Assembly (NCBI GenBank): GCA_963082975.1
Contig: OY720346.1
Location: 47,221,296-47,285,295, forward strand
Origin: Labia minor
Taxonomy: Eukaryota > Arthropoda > Insecta > Dermaptera > Spongiphoridae
Reading direction: 5' to 3'
DNA: 64,000 nucleotides
Each line of letters begins with the position of its first letter. Position 1 is the first letter of the stretch. Below, piece by piece: positions 5,976 to 61,487 of this stretch. The notes under the pieces were generated by a model. That model did no database searches and had not been told where the DNA came from. It worked only from the letters and a program-made list of their open reading frames with translations. The position numbers were made by a program, and so were the translations under genes.

Positions 5976-6124
5976 AATTTGCACTTAATTCTTTATTTGT
6001 ATTAAAATTTAAACATATTTTGAAGAAAATTATTTCAGAAAGTTAATAATTATATATTTTGGTTTGAATGTTGATTTTTTCATAGTGAAAATTATAAATT
6101 TCTTTGTAATATGTTTTAATTTTT

Positions 6125-6734
6125 ACTATCTCGCCAGAGATAGTATTGCGATCACGAAAATTTTCGATGTTGAGATTTTGATGTTTTTATACGTTTTGAA
6201 GGTCCCTGAATCATTTTCACTAAGGTTGAGAAAAATGTCTGTGTGTGTGTGTGTGTGTGTGTGTATGTAGGCAAGATTACGCAAAAACGGTTTGAGCTAG
6301 AATGATGAAATTTGGTACATGGACATTATTCAAAATTCGTAGTTTTCTATCAACTTTTGAGAAATGTAGCTCAACCGGAAGAGGGTCATTACCTACAACG
6401 TTTTGATTTTTTTTCCTCTAAAGTGACCGTAAAAATAAAAATATATGTTTGATAATTTTTCACATGATTAATAATTGTATAAAACTGCTATATATAGAAT
6501 TTCAGCTTGATTGATTCGCTGAAATTACCAGAATTAATTTTTTAACACTGCAAATCTCACGCGCCAACACGTGACCTGGTGCCATCAACAAAAAGCCAAA
6601 CATGCGCTGGTTTAATATTTATTATTTATTATTTATAATTTATAATTAATTAAATTTAATTTAAATATAATATATTATGTTATTTAATCCAATTCAAATT
6701 GCGAGATAGTCGAGTGGAGACACTCCAGCTAATT
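6125..6734 (+). mobile_element. Helentron-like family 1, complete copy
   Basis: Starts after TTTTT with the perfect hairpin ACTATCTC-gcca-GAGATAGT (6125-6144). The 10 bp ACTATCTCGC (6125-6134) recur inverted as GCGAGATAGT (6701-6710), followed one base later by the hairpin GAGTG-gaga-CACTC (6712-6725) and the tail CAGCTAATT. A (TG)n tract lies about 115 bp in. There is no coding capacity. The subterminal inverted repeats, internal microsatellite and 3' hairpin are the layout of HINEs (the DINE-1 type), non-autonomous relatives of Helentrons. Compared with the copy at 18.4 kb it differs at few positions by eye. Confidence 0.78.
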
Positions 6735-7472
6735 TTCTTTGTTCTATAAATATAATTTTCAGCATTTGATTAATAAGATTAGCTGTAAATGTGGGTGATC
6801 ATGGCAAAATAGTTTGTTTTATTTTAATCTGTTATTCTTAAAATAAATGGTTATTTAATAATAAAAGATATTTCAAATTTAAGCACTTAGTTCAGTCAAA
6901 TAAATTTCGACAGTAGCTCTCAACATTAAATAGCTTTCTTCTTATCAAAAGGCCCATATATTTGTATGCAAAATAAGAAGAAGAGTTATTTATGACTTAT
7001 TCAGATTAAAAAAAAATATTTCTTAAATAGCAAATTTAATGTTTTATTTAATTAATAATTAAAGTATCATTTTATTTTACTTATAATTTATGTGTTAAAT
7101 TAATTTTAAATTCTTTAGATTATCCAAGAAAAAACAATTTAACTTATATTATTCAGCACAATTTATTTTCTTTCTTTATAAAACAAAAAAATAAAAATAA
7201 AAAATACCTCTTAAGAAGATAAATGAAATAGTTTCTAAAATTAGACACAGCAGAAACCTCCTCTCTCACCGTAAATCAGAAGAGTGCTAAATTAGCCACC
7301 TTTTAATTAATTTCTTAATTATTCAACATCGATTAAAGTATTTTTAATATAATGAACTATAGAAAAATATTTAAGAGATAAAATGAATGAAAAGTTAACA
7401 TCACACTACTTTCATTTATTTATATATATATATATATATAATACACTAATATTAATAATTCTAATATTCATT

Positions 7473-17930: not shown

Positions 17931-18445
17931 GTATTTTATATTAATATAAATTCGAATAATAAATATAAATAAGAAAAATAAATACACTAAAATTAATAAA
18001 TTTTAATTTTAATATCTGAATTAAATATATTTAAGAGAATATTAAGTAAAATTAATTAAAAATAATAAAACGTTTTTTATATATATTATTTAAAACATCA
18101 TTTAAGAGATTTAAAAAGATAATTAAAATTTAAAATAAAAATCATATGTTTTAATTAAATGTCAATTATTGTTTTAATTGAGTTTATAATAGGTATATAA
18201 GTACTGTAGAAACTTTAAATATAATATATATTCTCACTTAGAGAAGATGTGTGTGTGGGAGGATGGAGGGGGGGGGGATGATGTAGTTGGTATAAAAGAA
18301 ACGTGGAACTTAGCACTTTGTTCATAAGGAGCATTCACCCTCTTCTATACAAAAATTGTATTATTATTATTTTAAGTATGATTTTATTACTTTAGATTTT
18401 TTTTAATATTTTATTTCTATGATAATTTTTTTATATTGCTTTTTT

Positions 18446-19094
18446 ACTATCTCGCCAGAGATAGTATTGCGATCACGAAAATTTTCGATGTTGAGATTTT
18501 GATGTTTTTATACTTTTTGAAGGTTCCTGAATCATTTTCACTAAGGTTGAGAAAAATGTCTGTGTGTGTGTGTGTATGTGTGTGTGTATGTGTGTGTGTG
18601 TGTATGTGTGTGTGTGTGTATGTATGTAGGCAAGATTACGCAAAAACGGTTTGAGCTAGAATGATGAAATTTGGTACATGGACATTATTCAAAATTCATA
18701 GTTTTCTATCAACTTTTGAGAAATGTAGCTCAACCGGAAGAGGGTCATTACCTACAACGTTTTGATTTTTTTTCCTCTAAAGTGACCGTAAAAATAAAGA
18801 TATATGTTTGATAATTTTTCACATGATAAATAATTGTATAAAACTGCTATATATAGAATTTCAGCTTGATTGATTCGCTGAAATTACCAGAATTAATTTT
18901 TTAACACTGCAAATCTCACGCGCCAACACGTGACGTGGTGCCATCAACAAAAAGCCAAACATGCGCTGGTTTAATATTTATTATTTATTATTTATAATTT
19001 ATAATTAATTAAATTTAATTTAAATATAATATATTATGTTATTTAATCCAATTCAAATTGCGAGATAGTCGAGTGGAGACACTCCAGCTAATTT
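18446..19094 (+). mobile_element. Helentron-like family 1, complete copy
   Basis: Same 5' hairpin, 10-bp subterminal inverted repeat, 3' hairpin and CAGCTAATT tail as the copy at 6125-6734. The (TG)n tract is expanded, with TATG interruptions. Outside the microsatellite the two copies differ at only a handful of bases by eye (for example CACGTGACGTGG here, CACGTGACCTGG there), suggesting recent spread. Confidence 0.78.
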
Positions 19095-27157: not shown

Positions 27158-27973
27158 TTTACTACATCTCCCAATGACATTATCAACTCACAATCAGTTA
27201 TTGTTCTTCTAGAATGTTGTTAAATATGTTAAACCTTACGGCACCAGGACGAGAGAGGCATTCTATAATTTTATATAAAACATTATAAATTAAGAACTTC
27301 GCCAATACATTGAAAAATATTTATTTCAACAATATTAAATTTGTTGAATATATTATCTTAAAAATGTAAAAATTTTATTTAATTTATTTTATTTTGTTGG
27401 TATGAATAGGATTATATAAGTAATACAATAAAAAAAATTTTCGTTAATATTTAAATAGAAAAATAATTTTGTTAATAATAATTTTTGATGTTTTAAAATT
27501 TTAATCTTTTTGATGAGATAAAATAAATCAAAATACATTTTCAACCAAATAGTATTCATTTATCTTCTTCTAATTTTTAATGTTATTGTGAAACTACTTA
27601 AAAAAATACAAATGTATATTTGGACCCAGTTTGCTAGGTGACCTAGAGCTCAAAACAGTCTCAATACAGAGTTAGCCTCTAAAGTGATTATTTATTTAAT
27701 ATTTTTTTTATTATGACTACAAGGCTCAACTAGTCTATATTTAGAATATTTTTGAAGTGAAACTTCTTTAGCGGCGTCCTGACATTTGGTTGAGAATGGA
27801 GAGTGAATTGAAAAATTGAAATTTCGTAACGCAAGAGAGAAAGAAGATATAGGTATAACGAGTGAGAATGAGATAGCCTCTATCTGCGTTTCCCTTTTGT
27901 GCTGTCTTTCGTTCTAATCCCCACTCTAGGTCCAAAGTCCATGACGCGCATGCGCGCTAGTTAAGTCATATAT

Positions 27974-28438
27974 AATTAGCTGGAGTGTCTCCACTCGACT
28001 ATCTCGCAATTTGAATTGGATTAAATAACATAATATATTATATTTAAATTAAATTTAATTAATTATAAATTATAAATAATAAATAATAAATATTAAACCA
28101 GCGCATGTTTGGCTTTTTGTTGATGGCACCACGTTACGTGTTGGCGCGTGAGATTTGCAGTGTTAAAAAATTAATTCTGGTAATTTTAGCGAATCAATCA
28201 AGCTGAAATTCTATATATAGCAGTTTTATACAATTATTAATCATGTGAAAAATTATCAAACATATATCTTTATTTTTACGGTCACTTTAGAGGAAAAAAA
28301 ATCAAAACGTTGTAGGTAATGACCCTCTTCCGGTTGACCTACATTTCTCAAAAGTTGATAGAAAACTATGAATTTTGAATAATGTCCATGTACCAAATTT
28401 CATCATTCTAGCTCAAACCGTTTTTGCGTAATCTTGCC

Positions 28439-28492
<54 letters not shown>

Positions 28493-28607
28493 GACATTTT
28501 TCTCAACCTTAGTGAAAATGATTCAGGAGCCTTCAAAACGTATAAAAACATCAAAATCTCAACATCGAAAATTTTCGTGATCGCAATACTATCTCTGGCG
28601 AGATAGT
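27974..28607 (-). mobile_element. Helentron-like family 1, complete copy (nested)
   Basis: Inverted relative to the 6.1- and 18.4-kb copies: AATTAGCTG, hairpin and repeat at the left (3' end), and the hairpin ACTATCTC-tggc-GAGATAGT followed by AAAAA at the right (5' end). It contains a (CA)n tract of about 23 units (about 28443-28489). It lies inside the 15-bp inverted repeat of the outer element and so inserted later. Confidence 0.78.
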
Positions 28608-28615
28608 AAAAATTG

Positions 28616-28645
28616 ATATTTATATATATATATATATATATATAT
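28616..28645. repeat. (TA)n microsatellite
   Basis: About 13 TA units next to the 5' end of the nested element. Confidence 0.9.
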
Positions 28646-28694
28646 CGTGAAATAATTAAAATTCTCAAGTCAAATATACAGCGTGCACGCATAC

Positions 28695-28764
28695 CGACGC
28701 ATGTAATTGTGTGTGTGAACATGGTCGGCGATTCACACGCCAACACATACAGTTATGTGCGTCG
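28695..28764 (+). other. 70-nt imperfect inverted repeat (hairpin)
   Basis: CGACGCATGTAATTGTGTGT pairs with ACACATACAGTTATGTGCGTCG over about 22 bp; every mismatch is a transition that leaves a G-U pair in RNA. GCGTGCACGC, a perfect 10-nt palindrome, lies just upstream at 28681-28690. The loop is about 26 nt. The inverted repeat is seen directly; transcription is unknown. Confidence 0.65.
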
Positions 28765-28875
28765 ATGACCATTCACGTTATTTATCCGAATCTCAACATT
28801 ACTTTAACATTACTAAATCGATTTAAAATTATTATTGCATTTAAAACTGCTTTTCTCTACTCCACAGATTTCACT

Positions 28876-29280
28876 ATGCCGAAAAAAAATAACGACCAAA
28901 ATTTAGACGATATTATTTATTTCATACACCGTTCACTACTGGTTTATAGCCACACAGGTGCTAATGCACTTGAACGAGGCGAAGATAAAATCCCTCTAAT
29001 TCTCGGGGGAGATTTTAATGTAAATTTTGGATCTGATGATTCGTTGCCGTTGATCAACTTTCTTCGAGAAACATTTGGTCTGCTTATAAATAACGATCCC
29101 AAGGAATCAACAACAAAATCTGGAACTACAAAAGATGCTGTTTTTACAGGTTATATAGAAAATATCGAATCACGAACATATATATCTTATTTTAGTTATC
29201 ACAAGCCATTAATATCAGTATTACCAATTGAAGCACCAACCGACAATAGTACAGGCAATGTAGATATGATGATAGAGTAG
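28876..29280 (+). CDS. Endonuclease/exonuclease/phosphatase-type domain, Helentron-associated (partial)
   Basis: From Met 28876 there are 134 codons with no stop; the frame is open from an earlier Met at 28711. IPLILGGDFNVNF (about residues 35-47 from the later Met) is the Gly-Gly-Asp-Phe-Asn catalytic loop of the APE-like endonuclease fold. TTKSGTTKDAVF and YFSYHKPLISVL follow, resembling the closing motifs of the endonuclease attached to insect Helentron helicase proteins (there usually GTTIDAVF and SYHKP). This is about the last third of the fold; the N-terminal catalytic residues are missing. TTTTCTCTACTCCACAG just upstream (to about 28867) looks like a splice acceptor, so the frame may be the last exon of a longer transcript. 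It is the cleanest transposon frame in the window. Confidence 0.6.
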   Translation: MPKKNNDQNLDDIIYFIHRSLLVYSHTGANALERGEDKIPLILGGDFNVNFGSDDSLPLINFLRETFGLLINNDPKESTTKSGTTKDAVFTGYIENIESRTYISYFSYHKPLISVLPIEAPTDNSTGNVDMMIE

Positions 29281-29460
29281 ATAATAATAATAATAAAGCG
29301 AATATTTGTTACGAAAATTTTATACTGTTATATGTCTTTCGAAATGATCCCTTTATTTTTCTCTATTTCTCTCTCACTCACACTCTCAACTAAAATTTAT
29401 CTTATTCTCTAGATTGTAAGAAGTTTCACTTCCGCCACGTGTACGATGCTGCACATTTTG

Positions 29461-30890
29461 CTTTTTTTCTTTTAATAATTTTATTAAATAAAAATGAAAA
29501 TTGGAATAAATATATAATATTGTATATATATATATATATAGACATCTGATTTAATTGACATAATGATAAGAGATAGAGAGTGAGAGAGAAAAAACAGCTG
29601 AAATTAATGCTGAACCTTCTGTGCACATCAAAAAGAGGAGTAATTGAATAGAGGGTTTTGGAATTAGAACGTTTAATTAAAATCTTGGCTTATGTGAATG
29701 TATATCTATACATTTAACAAGAGTGTGAATGTATATGTGTATTTGTGTGTGTGTGTGAGGGAAGGAGAAAGAGAGAATGATGCGATGACGAAAATTAAGG
29801 ATGGGAATTGGGGGGGGGGGGGGGGTAAGGGAGTGAAGAACGAGCAAAAAGCCAGAACAAATAAATAATCCGAAATATGCCTCTTTTGTCAACTGGTCGG
29901 CCGGTGCCCTGACGCGACAAAATAATTAAATTACAGTAATATTTTATGAAAATTCATATTATTATTAGTAGTAGTAATTTTCATAGGAAAATAGATAAAT
30001 TGGTTAAGTGGGTGGGGGTGGGGGGATGAGAAAGGGTAAATGTGGGATGGAAAGTCAATGACCGATTTACTGATTAGATATCAAGAAGTGATCTAACATT
30101 TAATTGTTTTAGATATTATATATATAAGGAGAAAGAGAGAGGGTGAAACAAAGATATTCATTGATAATTTATTAAAATAAAATATATAAATGATAACACT
30201 TTCTAATTAATAATATTAATAGATTTGAATCAAGGTTCAATGACATGTTAAAATAATTATTCCATTTTGTATATATATATATACATATATTTTGTAAATC
30301 CTCCTTTATTTATATTTTTTATATTATAAATTTTTATTTTCTATTATATTAATTACGAGTATTATTTTTTTAGAAGAATATTTTAATTTTTTTAAAAAAA
30401 ACGCATTTTGTGAAATATAAAAAGAGTAATAATAATTATTAATTAAGAAATTTAATAAACAAATATTGTATTCTCTAATTAATTAAAGAATATTCGAAAT
30501 AAATAAATAAAATAAAAATAAAATAAAATAAAGTGGTGAGAAAATTTTCTATTTGAAATTCAATGGGTTACTTAATAAATTTACTTTTTATTTATTTACC
30601 AGCTGCCACCAAGAACCATAAAATTTAAATTCCTTATAGTTCTCTTCCGTAATGTGATTTATACAGCGGTAAAGAAATAAATGTTGAGATGTCTGTTGAA
30701 ATCAATATTGTTTTAGAGACAAAAATGTTTATGAAGTAATTCTAGGCAAACTTGCATAATAGATTATTATCAAATTATATTTAATGTTGAACTAAGGTAA
30801 GAAGGAGAAGAACAGAATTTAATTTGAATTATATCGTTTAATAAATATTAGTATTATTATATATATTATATATATTATATATTAAGGTAT
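29461..30890. other. A+T-rich intergenic DNA with G16 run
   Basis: (TA)n at about 29523-29540, a G16 run at 29810-29825 within a G-rich patch, and GA tracts. No gene recognised. Confidence 0.5.
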
Positions 30891-55203: not shown

Positions 55204-55466
55204 TAAAGGTAAGTGTCCACTTGAGACAAATTGGTCTCGAGACTGATATCGAGACAAGACTCTCAAATGTATGTGTGCCTGAGAGCGCTCTCAGAGACAA
55301 GCCTATACAAGTATCAGACACTGCACTTGTCACAAGTGGACATGATCATTCCTGCTCACGAGATTTAGTCACCAGTCTTCCGTCAATGTTGGAAGAGCTG
55401 AGAGTCGGTCTGGATACTTTTTATTTAAAATATTTCTTTAATTTAAATTACAAATCAATTTTTTAA

Positions 55467-56099
55467 ATAAGTTGACCTGTGGCCAGGTCCGAACCGACCG
55501 ACGGTTTGAAATAAATTAATTTCCAGCTACAGAAACAATTTCAAATAATTTTAATATATCTATTAATGTAATAACAAACAGATATGGATAGAACATAAAT
55601 ATTTGTAATTTTATTTTATTTATAATATATAGCTGAAGTAGCCCTCGTTGCCGGCGTTACCCGAGGCTGTGACGTCATGAAGGGCTGGGTGACGTCATAT
55701 AATTTTAAATTAAGAAAAACATAATGAAGATGATTTTTCCCGAGGATAAAACCAATACATTCGTGGTGATATATAACAAAATCTCCTCAAGTGAAATTTG
55801 GTGTGAAAATAACCCTTCCCTTCCTATCGTCGATCGCTAATACTACCACTTCCGGTTTCCGGATTTGCACCAAAAGTTGATCAATTCATCCCACTGATGC
55901 ATTAAGTAAATATACCAAATTTCATCAAAATCGGTTGAGCCATCCAGGCTGTACACATCTATACGACGGACAGACGGACAGACATCATGCTAAAAATACT
56001 TTTTTGTTTAGAAAATGCATGATTCGTGGAGATATGTAAAAATCTCCACATGTGAAATTTGGTGTGAAAACAATACCTCCCTTACTATCGTTGGTCGGT
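55467..56099 (-). mobile_element. Helentron-like family 2, complete copy nested in the Harbinger element
   Basis: Left: AATAAGTT, then the hairpin GACCTG-tggc-CAGGTC (55474-55489), then ACCGACCGACG (55493-55503). Right: CGTTGGTCGGT before AAAA, one mismatch. It sits five bases before the ATG of the MADF remnant. Confidence 0.82.
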
Positions 56100-56103
56100 A
56101 AAA

Positions 56104-56253
56104 ATGAATGATAAGCGCGAGTGGACTGACGAGGAAGTGTTTAAATTAATCGAACTTTATGAGGAGAAAGAGTTTTTATGGAATGTAAAACATAAACTTT
56201 ATAGAAATCGCGAAAAAAATGGCAATGTACGAAGAATTTGCTTCGAAATTTGA
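56104..56253 (+). pseudogene. MADF-domain protein N-terminus of the Harbinger element
   Basis: 49 codons from ATG 56104: KREWTDEEVFKLIELYEEKE, then FLWNVKHKLYRNREK, then a stop at 56251. The [KR]LIELYEE-x-x-x-LWN pattern is the first helix of the MADF/Myb-like DNA-binding domain, the accessory protein encoded by PIF/Harbinger transposons. Leaving out one A of the A7 run at about 56213-56219 would restore the continuing MAMYEEFASKF helix, so a 1-base indel broke it. The rest of the domain (usually about 85 residues) is lost. Confidence 0.75.
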
Positions 56254-56485
56254 AAATTAAATCTCAAAACTTAATCTCAAAACTAACAACCAAGTCACAG
56301 AATCGACTGAGACTTGAGAGTAAGCTCTCAAGTGTACACAAAATTTTCCGATCTCGAGACTGCAGTGACTGTCGAGTCTCCAAATGCTGTCTCGAGAGCG
56401 CAAGTGATCTCAAATGGACAACACTTCGGAACTAATCTCGAGACTTTCTCTCGAGAATTTGTCTCAAGTGGACACTTACCTTAAG

Positions 56486-58788: not shown

Positions 58789-61487
58789 TTCATATAGAAT
58801 AGCTCTCTGGAACTCAAACGGTTTAATCCAACGTCGTCATGAAATTGAAATTTTTCTAAATTACGAAAAAATAGATATTATGCTAATAAGTGAAACGCAT
58901 TTCACAAACAAACATTACCTTTACATTTCTGGATACAACTGTTACACCACACAACATCCAGATGGAATCGCCCATGGTGGATCTGCCATGCTAAATAAAA
59001 ATTCTATTTCCCATTATGAAAAAGAAAAATAAGAAAAAGATTACCTTCAAGCAACCTCCATTCATATCACAGATAAAAATGGCGCTGGAATCACAATTAG
59101 TGCTGTCTATTGCTCTCCTAGACACAATATCACTAAAGAAGAATTTTCTAGGTTTTTCGAAACACTTGGTCCAAAATTCATTACAGGTGGGGAGTTTAAT
59201 AGTAAACACACTAATTGGGGATCACGGGTCATAAATACAAAAGACACACACAGAAACTTATATAAAACTATATCCTCTAACAATTACGCTACTCTAACTA
59301 CAAGCAAACCTACTTATTTTCCTTCTGATACAAATAGATTGCCAGATTTACTTGATTTATTCATTTTAAAAGCTTTAAATAATTCTTATAGATCTTTAGA
59401 AGAATGTACAGATCTAAGCTCTGATCATATACCTATAATAGCCACAATCAGTTCCACAAAAATAATAAATCACTTAAATCCTATCTTAATTAATAAAAAA
59501 ACAAACTGGTTACATTTTAAAAATCAAATTGAGAATAATCTAAATACAAATATTCCCTTAAGAACTGACAAAGAAAATGAAATTACAATTGAATATTTCA
59601 ATGAAATAATTCAGCAATCCGCCTGGCAATCTACACCCTCAACCAACAATGGGAAACGAAAAATTAATTGTATATTTGAATTAAGAGAAAAAAATAAAGG
59701 AAAAGAGAAGGCTCCGTAAAATATGGCAAACAACTCATTTCCCGGGAGATAAATCGAAATTTAATAAAGTTTCAAAAGAATTAAAAAATGTAATAATAAA
59801 AAACAAAATTGATACACTGCAAGATAAATTATCAAAATTGTCGCCTCAAGGTAACAATGAACATTTTCTTTGGAGCTTCACAAAATACTTAAAAAGATCC
59901 AAATCTTTCATCTCACCTTTAAAAACAAACTCAAATACCTGGTCAAGATCAAACTTAGAAAAAACTGAAACTTTTGCCAAACATCTAGAAAATACATTCA
60001 ACCCTTTTCCCCAAACCTGTCCAAACTCTGAAAATATTGAAATAGAAGAATTTTTACTTTCACCATCTCAACAGACGCCACCGATTCGACCTTTCTCCAC
60101 AAAAGAAATAAAACAAATTTTAAAAAAAGAACCCTCTAAAAAAAATCTCCCGGTTATGACCTTAATACGATTCAAGTGCTTAAAAATCTCCCTAAAAAGG
60201 CGGTAATTTTACTGAAAGAAATATATAACGCTTTTATAAGAATCAGCTATTTTCCAATTCAATGGAAATTCGCACAAATAATTATGATTGCGATACCTGG
60301 CAAACCGGAACATGAAGCCTCTTCATATAGACCTATTAGCCTCATTCCTTTAACTTCAAAAATCTTTGAAAAACTACAACAAACTCGACTAAAATCAGAT
60401 ATCAATATAGATCAAATTATTCCTCAGCATCAATTCGGATTCTGTAAACAGCACTCTAAGACAGAGCAAATACATCGTATTGTTAATATCATTTAATCAA
60501 CACTTGAAGAAAAAATGATATGTTCTGGGGTGTTCATGGATGTCAAACTAGCCTTTGACAAAGTTTTGCATAAAGGACTGCTATATAAAATCAAAAAACG
60601 TTTACCTCAACAATACTTTTGAATCCTTAAGTCATACTTACAAGATCGATGGTTCTAGATAAAAATAGAAAATGAATTTTCAAGTATTCACCAAATCAGA
60701 TCAGGGGTTCCACAAGGCAGCATTCTTCCTCCACTTCTTTATACAATATACACTGCAGATATTCCTATATTAAATGCCACCTTCATTGCTACATATGCAG
60801 ATGACACAGCTTTACTTGTAATAAACAACGAACCTGACATAATTTCAAGAAAACTTCAAGAACAATTAGATTGTTTACAAAGCTGGCTACAAAAATGGAG
60901 AATTCATATAAACAACCAAAAAAGTGTTCATATTACATAACAGACAATTAACATGTCCACCCATTTACTTAAATTCCCAAATTATCCCTAACTGTGACGT
61001 TGTTAAATATCTCGGATTTCATTTAGACACAAGACTCACGTGGAAAACACATATCGAATCTAAACGAAAACAACTGAACATCAAATACAAAAACATGTAC
61101 TGGTTAATAGGAAGAAAATCACAGCTTGCATTAAAAAACAAAATTTTAATATTTATATATTAAAACTAATCTGGTCCTACGCCTCCAAGTGATTCCAAGA
61201 ACACAATCTAAGATCCTTAGATTTATCACAAACGCTCCTTGGTATATAACCAAAGAATCTTAACATAAAGATATTCTTGTCCCTTCAGTCAGGGAAGTCA
61301 TAATCAAAACATATGAAAAATATATTTCAAAACTATAAAATCATACAAACCCATTGGTTATCGACCTAGTCTAACCAAAAGAAGATTAAAAAAATTTCAC
61401 ATTTATTGGACACAGAAGATCGTTCAAAGCATAACGATTGGACAAATAAATTCCATTAGAGAGATCATCATTGGAAGACAACTCTAA
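58781..61487 (+). pseudogene. Jockey ORF2 (endonuclease and reverse transcriptase), broken
   Basis: About 900 codons, the usual Jockey length. Endonuclease motifs: ALWNSNGLIQRRHEIEIFL, ISETHF with the catalytic Glu, YCSPRH, ITGGEFNSKHTNWGS and LSSDHIPI. The normally invariant Asp of GGDFN is Glu here. Reverse transcriptase motifs: SSYRPISLIPLTSKIFEKL (about 60325), FMDVKLAFDKV (block A), IRSGVPQGSILPPLLY (block B), ATYADDTALLV (block C, YADD intact) and VKYLGFHLDTRLTWKTHI (thumb). Stops occur in frame at 59030, 60494, 60620 and 60657, with several frameshifts. It would nick the target and prime cDNA synthesis on the nick; this copy cannot. Confidence 0.88.

What the first reader, a model, noticed from the sequence alone, without database searches (positions are those of the whole stretch)
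27754..29460. Endonuclease-bearing element bounded by a perfect 15-bp inverted repeat, with nested younger element
GAAGTGAAACTTCTT and its exact inverse enclose an open endonuclease frame and a later family-1 insertion. The element has no Rep or helicase part, so it would be a short derivative that kept only the endonuclease. A stand-alone Helentron endonuclease cassette would be unusual.
Basis: partly seen in the sequence, partly recalled or inferred. Interest (0 to 1): 0.78.

Follow-up and report, generated by a model that had tools for sequence, protein, structure and literature searches.

The report
Short jumping-gene offspring of a Helentron
This is one of many nearly identical, shortened copies of a rolling-circle jumping gene that lost its replication machinery but kept its two ends and half of its DNA-cutting enzyme; it is a very successful genomic parasite of a known kind rather than a new system.

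Summary
The 15-bp inverted repeat is real and marks a mobile element. The host assembly (604 Mb) holds 1200 forward and 1208 reverse exact copies, against 1 and 1 for the control pattern. The 35 distinct copies compared, chosen for exact 15-mers at both ends, share Helentron-type ends beyond the 15-mers: T-run, self-palindromic 15-mer, second 15-mer, about 29 bp, T-run. The 134-aa frame is not a whole endonuclease: it is the first 8 codons of a Rep protein fused in frame to the C-terminal half of a Helentron endonuclease, by a deletion with 3-bp microhomology. The exact junction occurs 918 times. A candidate parent on contig C2 has Rep, PIF1 helicase, endonuclease and the same 3' end; its 5' 15-mer was not seen. 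The family-1 piece is a nested insertion (empty in 5 sister copies, filled in 11 others), multiplied with the unit. Copies differ by about 0.26% from their majority sequence: a recent burst. In 20 copies chosen by spacing the frame is intact in 11, broken or absent in 9, so it looks like a passenger.

The parts
27749..27753 (+). 5' terminal T-run (boundary lies within it)
   Evidence: all 37 rows (35 distinct copies) have at least TT directly before the 15-mer; the flank beyond differs between copies
27754..27768 (+). 5' subterminal inverted repeat GAAGTGAAACTTCTT, itself holding a 5-bp stem
27769..27973 (+). 5' non-coding module, shared with sister copies with indels (79-99% identical in the pieces matched)
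27974..28609 (.). nested family-1 element (another palindrome-ended repeat), inserted between A and A without visible target duplication; ends given to within a few bases
   Evidence: empty site in L023, L032, L035, L040, L044 and in the leader L100 of the candidate parent
28610..28875 (+). leader of the parental Rep gene, including an AT microsatellite and CTCCACAG before the ATG (possible splice acceptor, untested)
   Evidence: 28607-28860 is 98% identical to L100 at C2:16279933-16280188; the parent has about 150 bp more before the ATG
28876..29280 (+). 134-codon fusion frame with stop: MPKKNNDQ (start of the Rep protein) joined to the last 126 residues of the Helentron endonuclease
   Evidence: junction counted 918 times in the genome
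28897..28899 (+). deletion junction: the 3-bp microhomology CAA, common to both parental sides
   Evidence: sides aligned; position counted from the ATG at 28876
29281..29417 (+). 3' untranslated stretch
   Evidence: 97% to L102 of the candidate parent
29418..29432 (-). 3' subterminal inverted repeat
   Evidence: same in the candidate parent at C2:16286252
29433..29461 (+). conserved 3' tail CGCCACGTGTACGATGCTGCACATTTTGC (weak stem-loop)
   Evidence: variants in L010/L011/L048 and L030; folding energies weak
29462..29468 (+). 3' terminal T-run (boundary lies within it)

Best explanation
It is one copy of a high-copy non-autonomous Helentron (HINE-type) family. SHOWN: the ends are Helentron-like; an internal deletion joined the first 8 codons of a Rep protein to the C-terminal half of the endonuclease; the same junction is present 918 times; one locus with Rep, helicase, endonuclease and the same 3' end exists; a family-1 element inserted into one branch and was multiplied with it; the copies read are nearly identical, so the burst is recent. 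INFERRED: copies move by rolling-circle transposition, when Rep/helicase protein from a partner acts in trans on the shared ends and copies are inserted into T-rich sites. The 134-aa frame is open mainly because the family is young; it is probably not needed for movement and probably cannot cut DNA, as it lacks the N-terminal catalytic half.
For: 15-mer counts 1200/1208 against control 1/1; 48 pairs in the 100 listed places. Uniform ends in 37 rows, 35 distinct copies, chosen for exact 15-mers. L066 has a longer N-terminal fusion, which gave the query for the Rep start. That 35-mer matches at 100% at C2:16280358 in a 779-aa frame, the length and phase of the frame that carries the Rep match C2:16282032-16282490; PIF1 at C2:16283881-16284504; endonuclease with NCQSLR, SETW, RAGGVAIY and GGDFN in L101, PF03372 E 1.4e-05; 3' 15-mer and tail at C2:16286252. 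Leader 98% identical, 5' module 97-98% identical to that of L050, L052, L065 and L066. Junction 494+424 copies, control 0/0; undeleted 26-mer 46. Mean 2.1 substitutions per about 809 bp to the majority sequence in 33 rows; 1.8 in the 16 rows not picked by similarity. Published anatomy of Helentrons and their deletion derivatives: PMC4067079 (passages).
Against: The candidate parent's 5' 15-mer was not seen: it is absent from C2:16279050-16280500, and a gapped pattern for one range of distances upstream found 0 in the genome. Of the parent only C2:16279050-16280500, 16285200-16285900 and 16286130-16286400 were read; the rest is known from domain matches. Its PIF1 match is in another phase than its Rep and endonuclease, so this copy may have introns or may not be functional. 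The 3' stem-loop is weak by calculation. Empty sites for the outer element were not tested. Movement itself is not shown.
Confidence: 0.92

Rival explanations
1. The 134-aa fusion protein is made and acts in trans on the family, either as a repressor of the full Helentron protein (as proposed for KP and the P element) or as a helper.
For: The derivative with the highest count keeps the native start codon, leader and an in-frame fusion. 4 of 7 derivative junction types join in frame by length (window junction plus 6 types; P = 0.17 against one third), so no excess is shown. Truncated P elements are precedents (PMC6917496, passages; there KP-type variants are said to have been seen as inhibitors).
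Against: In 20 copies chosen by spacing, 11 frames are intact and 9 broken or absent. Of 20 kinds of base change in 53 aligned frames, 17 change the protein (30 of the 53 were picked by the protein search, some rows repeat one copy, and no neutral expectation was computed). L048, L052, L063 and L065 share a 2-bp frameshift. The N-terminal half of the endonuclease is missing.
Confidence: 0.08
2. The frame comes from a LINE (CR1/Jockey-type) endonuclease that was caught between chance repeats.
For: The window frame alone scores only weakly against Pfam, best for Exo_endo_phos_2 (E 0.089), a model that also fits the endonuclease frame at window 59033-59716.
Against: In the copies read the frame is followed by its stop, about 137 bp and the 3' 15-mer. 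The same endonuclease lies downstream of Rep and PIF1 at the candidate parent.
Confidence: 0.01
3. A cut-and-paste DNA transposon or MITE with 15-bp terminal inverted repeats.
For: Perfect inverted repeat; many short copies.
Against: The repeat is subterminal, with T-runs and a conserved 3' tail outside it; no flanking duplication is visible by eye in the 22-bp 5' and short 3' flanks of 37 rows; the locus that shares leader, frame and 3' end has Rep and helicase domains.
Confidence: 0.03

Closest known systems
HINE / DINE-1-like non-autonomous Helentrons (Thomas, Vadnagara and Pritham 2014, PMC4067079; passages read)
   Same: Palindromic subterminal inverted repeats in some families, T-runs at the boundaries, deletion derivatives that outnumber the partner, high identity to the partner (98% leader, about 99% endonuclease part, 97% 3' end here)
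   Different: Here the main derivative keeps a start codon fused in frame to half the endonuclease; in the passages read, non-autonomous elements are described as not encoding proteins. The 3' stem-loop is weak here.
Helentron (autonomous partner)
   Same: At the candidate parent: order Rep, PIF1 helicase, AP-type endonuclease, then the same 3' end
   Different: The window element has neither Rep nor helicase; at the candidate parent the PIF1 match is in another phase than Rep and endonuclease
KP and Har-P elements of Drosophila P (PMC6917496; passages read)
   Same: Internally deleted derivatives of a full element
   Different: Different transposition chemistry (recalled); no regulatory effect is shown here

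Membership tests
non-autonomous Helentron (HINE) | subterminal inverted repeats, palindromic in some families | tested here: met
   15-mer pairs with a 5-bp self-complementary stem
non-autonomous Helentron (HINE) | T-runs at both boundaries | tested here: met
   all 37 rows (35 distinct copies) have TT before the 5' 15-mer and at least 5 Ts after the 3' tail, counted by eye
non-autonomous Helentron (HINE) | no target-site duplication, shown by paralogous empty sites | not tested
   empty sites were found only for the nested family-1 piece, not for the outer element
non-autonomous Helentron (HINE) | short stem-loop just before the 3' end | tested here: inconclusive
   DNA folding gives -4.1 kcal/mol for 29418-29480 and -1.7 for 29430-29470
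non-autonomous Helentron (HINE) | related locus with Rep, PIF1 helicase and C-terminal endonuclease | tested here: met
   C2:16280358-16286266; domains in that order on one strand
non-autonomous Helentron (HINE) | endonuclease fused to Rep/helicase in one reading frame of the partner | tested here: inconclusive
   Rep and endonuclease are in one phase, PIF1 in another; introns or frameshifts not resolved, most of the locus unread
non-autonomous Helentron (HINE) | partner shares both ends | tested here: inconclusive
Helentron (autonomous) | encodes Rep and helicase | tested here: not met
   the longest frame in the element is 206 codons, stop to stop; no Rep or PIF1 match listed at the window's place
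working stand-alone AP endonuclease | complete catalytic domain including the N-terminal motifs (motif roles recalled) | tested here: not met
   NCQSLR and SETW are in the candidate parent (L101) upstream of the junction and missing from the window frame; Pfam Exo_endo_phos is matched only from position 144 of 225 (E 0.17)
LINE | reverse transcriptase next to the endonuclease in other copies | tested here: not met
   stop to 3' 15-mer leaves about 137 bp in the copies read
cut-and-paste TIR transposon | terminal inverted repeats with target-site duplication | tested here: not met
   repeats are subterminal; no duplication seen by eye in 37 rows; no empty-site test

The most novel reading that the evidence does not exclude
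The family's main derivative spread because its in-frame fusion protein (Rep start plus half endonuclease) is expressed and modulates the full Helentron protein in trans, which would be, as far as I know, the first KP-like self-regulatory product of a rolling-circle transposon.
Probability: 0.07. Interest if true: 0.65.

Novelty: new member of a known kind. Interest (0 to 1): 0.3.

Why it matters
It is a clear and recent case of how a rolling-circle transposon gives birth to a parasite of itself: one deletion with 3-bp microhomology, one Rep-bearing candidate parent found, and 918 copies of the junction in one genome, with another element hitch-hiking inside one branch. It also warns annotators that an open endonuclease frame with a leader and an ATG in such copies is half a domain, not a gene. 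Whether such fusion products are made and do anything is directly testable with RNA data.

Tried and rejected
LINE origin of the frame: set aside because of the candidate parent. Private later insertion of family-1: rejected, because the filled site recurs in 11 other copies and the empty site in 5; L030 has other sequence left of the site. Conserved gene or selected frame: not supported, on the broken frames and protein-changing substitutions. The 7.4-kb pair L059 as the full element: rejected; no Rep or PIF1 match is listed there, the endonuclease is interrupted by about 100 bp with a 14-bp overlap of match ends, and the extra length holds a 1087-codon frame on the other strand that looks by eye like a LINE. 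Canonical Helitron L070 as partner: no endonuclease in C5:34919900-34921500, with 0.4 kb after the PIF1 match unread. L096 as partner: none in C9:34494400-34496000, with 0.64 kb after the PIF1 match unread. None of the 30 Rep loci holds the Rep start or the endonuclease within the about 3.5 kb fetched. Viral contigs: the protein search found 5 pattern matches, none confirmed; 17- and 19-mers of the 5' end occur in 9 contigs, none of which appears in the blastn table of matches of 60 bp or more, so chance is likely. Phage records: none. PDB by sequence: no meaningful match, best E 0.045. The 5' end in print: 0 papers in one search for a 16-base word.

Full report
OBSERVATION. The 15-mer GAAGTGAAACTTCTT is at 27754-27768 and its exact inverse at 29418-29432. 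In Markov-simulated windows a comparable perfect repeat within 3 kb arose in 1 of 60; the real window holds others too, most of them inside other repeat families. The genome settles it: 1200 forward and 1208 reverse exact copies, control pattern 1 and 1. Of the 100 places listed, 48 are +/- pairs with outer lengths 801-7421 bp, clustering near 1.6-1.8, 2.3 and 3.0 kb; 3 are lone and 1 is cut by the list. How many of the 2408 are paired was not counted.

ENDS. 37 rows from 35 distinct copies (one copy appears three times) were compared. They were chosen for exact 15-mers at both ends inside the fetched stretch, so the 15-mers agree by construction; several other fetched loci have only one exact 15-mer or none. 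Beyond the 15-mers all rows agree: variable flank, at least TT, 15-mer, then tagcggcgtcctgac (one base differs in L066); at 3' the inverse 15-mer, a tail that is CGCCACGTGTACGATGCTGCACATTTTGC in most rows (variants in L010/L011/L048 and L030), and at least 5 Ts. Each 15-mer holds its own hairpin, GAAGT-gaa-ACTTC. This matches the anatomy given for Helentrons with palindromic subTIRs and Ts at the boundaries (PMC4067079, passages), although the 3' stem-loop is energetically weak here.

FRAME. The 134-codon frame at 28876-29280 scores weakly against Pfam endonuclease models (E 0.089 and 0.17, below both cut-offs). A tblastn in the host genome scored 150 of 1430 candidates; those 150 best are 98-100% identical over all 134 residues. 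A differently deleted copy, L066, reads MPKKNNDQPQGTKGGKNVPGIKKVAKTAAERMRAY before the endonuclease. Searched alone, that 35-mer has 19 matches; the one at C2:16280358 is 100% identical and lies in a 779-aa frame, the same length and phase as the frame with a Helitron_like_N (Rep) match at C2:16282032-16282490 (E 4.7e-21; phase). PIF1 follows at C2:16283881-16284504 (E 1.1e-28). The endonuclease, with NCQSLR, SETW, RAGGVAIY and GGDFN, lies in L101, and the 3' 15-mer with tail and T-run at C2:16286252. The window's 28607-28860 is 98% identical to the leader of this Rep gene. Of this locus I read 16279050-16280500, 16285200-16285900 and 16286130-16286400.

JUNCTION. Aligned, the window reads AACGACCAA|AATTTAGACG, the Rep start AACGACCAA|CCACAAGG and the endonuclease CCAAATCAA|AATTTAGACG. 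One deletion with a 3-bp microhomology (CAA, window 28897-28899) thus removed nearly all of Rep, the helicase and the N-terminal half of the endonuclease, and left an in-frame fusion of 8 plus 126 residues. The exact 19-base junction occurs 918 times (494 and 424; control 0 and 0); the undeleted 26-mer, searched with up to one mismatch, occurs 46 times. Pairing those 46 with 18 Rep-start places (two of the 19 matches adjoin and were taken as one), only C2:16280358 has the two parts kilobases apart (5256 bp); seven others have the endonuclease within 230 bp, and ten have none within 20 kb downstream. Counting L066 and C2:79333365 (same spacing) as one type and adding the window junction, 4 of 7 derivative types are in frame by length (P = 0.17 against one third); for C9:21666181 the listed open frame of 131 aa looks too short to span the joined parts. 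This is no evidence for selection.

CLASSES. The copies read fall into classes that share the 3' module but differ inside: about 1.68 kb (window type, with the family-1 piece at the same place), 3.0 kb (another family-1-related piece), 2.3 kb, 1.2-1.3 kb (no family-1), 1.0 and 0.9 kb, and one copy (L056) that has both ends and lacks the endonuclease. The family-1 site is filled in the window copy and 11 others and empty in L023, L032, L035, L040 and L044, and empty in the leader of the candidate parent: AAGTCATATATA|AAAATTGATATTT, two bases shorter in L044; no duplication is visible. So the nesting is real, but it happened before the unit multiplied.

AGE AND SELECTION. Over about 809 bp of the 3' module, 33 rows (32 distinct copies, the window copy being present twice) differ from the majority sequence by 2.1 substitutions on average, about 0.26%, gaps not counted. 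16 of these rows came from the similarity-picked set; the 16 rows from L048-L067 average 1.8. Four copies with shorter matches (L048, L056, L059, L066) were dropped. In 53 aligned frames (30 picked by the protein search, some repeats of one copy) 17 of 20 kinds of base change alter the protein, among them a start loss, a stop and a stop loss; I did not compute the neutral expectation. The 20 copies L048-L067 were chosen by me by spacing from the places listed on C1, before any frame was known and not at random: 11 have the frame intact to the native stop (one of 131 aa, one the longer L066 form), 9 do not. L048, L052, L063 and L065 share a 2-bp insertion that shifts the frame. The frame is thus unlikely to be needed in cis. 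The window's change at codon 86 is seen in no other of the 53 rows (L018 is the window itself); that at codon 92 is shared at most with L019 and L060.

MECHANISM. Best reading: Rep/helicase protein made by a partner acts in trans on the shared ends, and copies are inserted in T-rich sites by rolling-circle transposition, as proposed for Helentrons and their deletion derivatives. This step is inferred from family knowledge. Whether the C2 locus is the active partner is open: Rep and endonuclease are in one phase, the PIF1 match in another, which may mean introns or frameshifts; I did not resolve this. Its 5' 15-mer was not reached: the part read matches the inner 5' modules of L050, L052, L065 and L066 at 97-98%, and one gapped pattern found 0.

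NOVELTY. Rolling-circle deletion derivatives that outnumber their partner are established (PMC4067079, passages). The points that stand out are the high count of one junction and the in-frame fusion. I found no printed counterpart in the searches, of which only the listings were read, apart from passages of PMC4067079 and PMC6917496; this is not a proof of absence.

Noticed in passing
window 6118-6735, 18441-19093, 27974-28609: Family-1 is itself a palindrome-ended repeat (3' ACTATCTCTGGCGAGATAGT, with a 10-bp subterminal inverse ACTATCTCGC near its 5' end) that inserts without visible duplication, so it may be a second Helitron2/Helentron-like family.
   Followed up: partly
window 59033-60206: LINE-type endonuclease frame (Exo_endo_phos_2, E 5.4e-16) followed by a further open frame without a Pfam match.
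   Followed up: partly
window 55206-55231 and 56457-56482: Perfect inverted repeat of at least 26 bp (AAGGTAAGTGTCCACTTGAGACAAAT; the list was cut there) around another dispersed repeat (55415-56105).
   Followed up: no
L074-L080 and L082 (host genome): A Helitron-type Rep/PIF1 family with open frames of 1537-1655 aa in copies that look near-identical, so rolling-circle elements other than the partner may be active in this genome.
   Followed up: no
L048, L052, L063, L065: A 2-bp insertion in the endonuclease frame is shared by copies of different length classes, which suggests exchange of modules between classes or a common source.
   Followed up: no
L051 (same copy as L015 and L016), L039, L047, L057: Copies whose end lies within about 50 bp of a family-1 repeat, as if family-1 ends were favoured targets; not tested against chance.
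   Followed up: no
L059: A 3-kb-class copy carries a long insertion with a 1087-codon frame on the other strand that looks by eye like a LINE, and a second insertion of about 100 bp in the endonuclease with a 14-bp overlap of match ends.
   Followed up: partly
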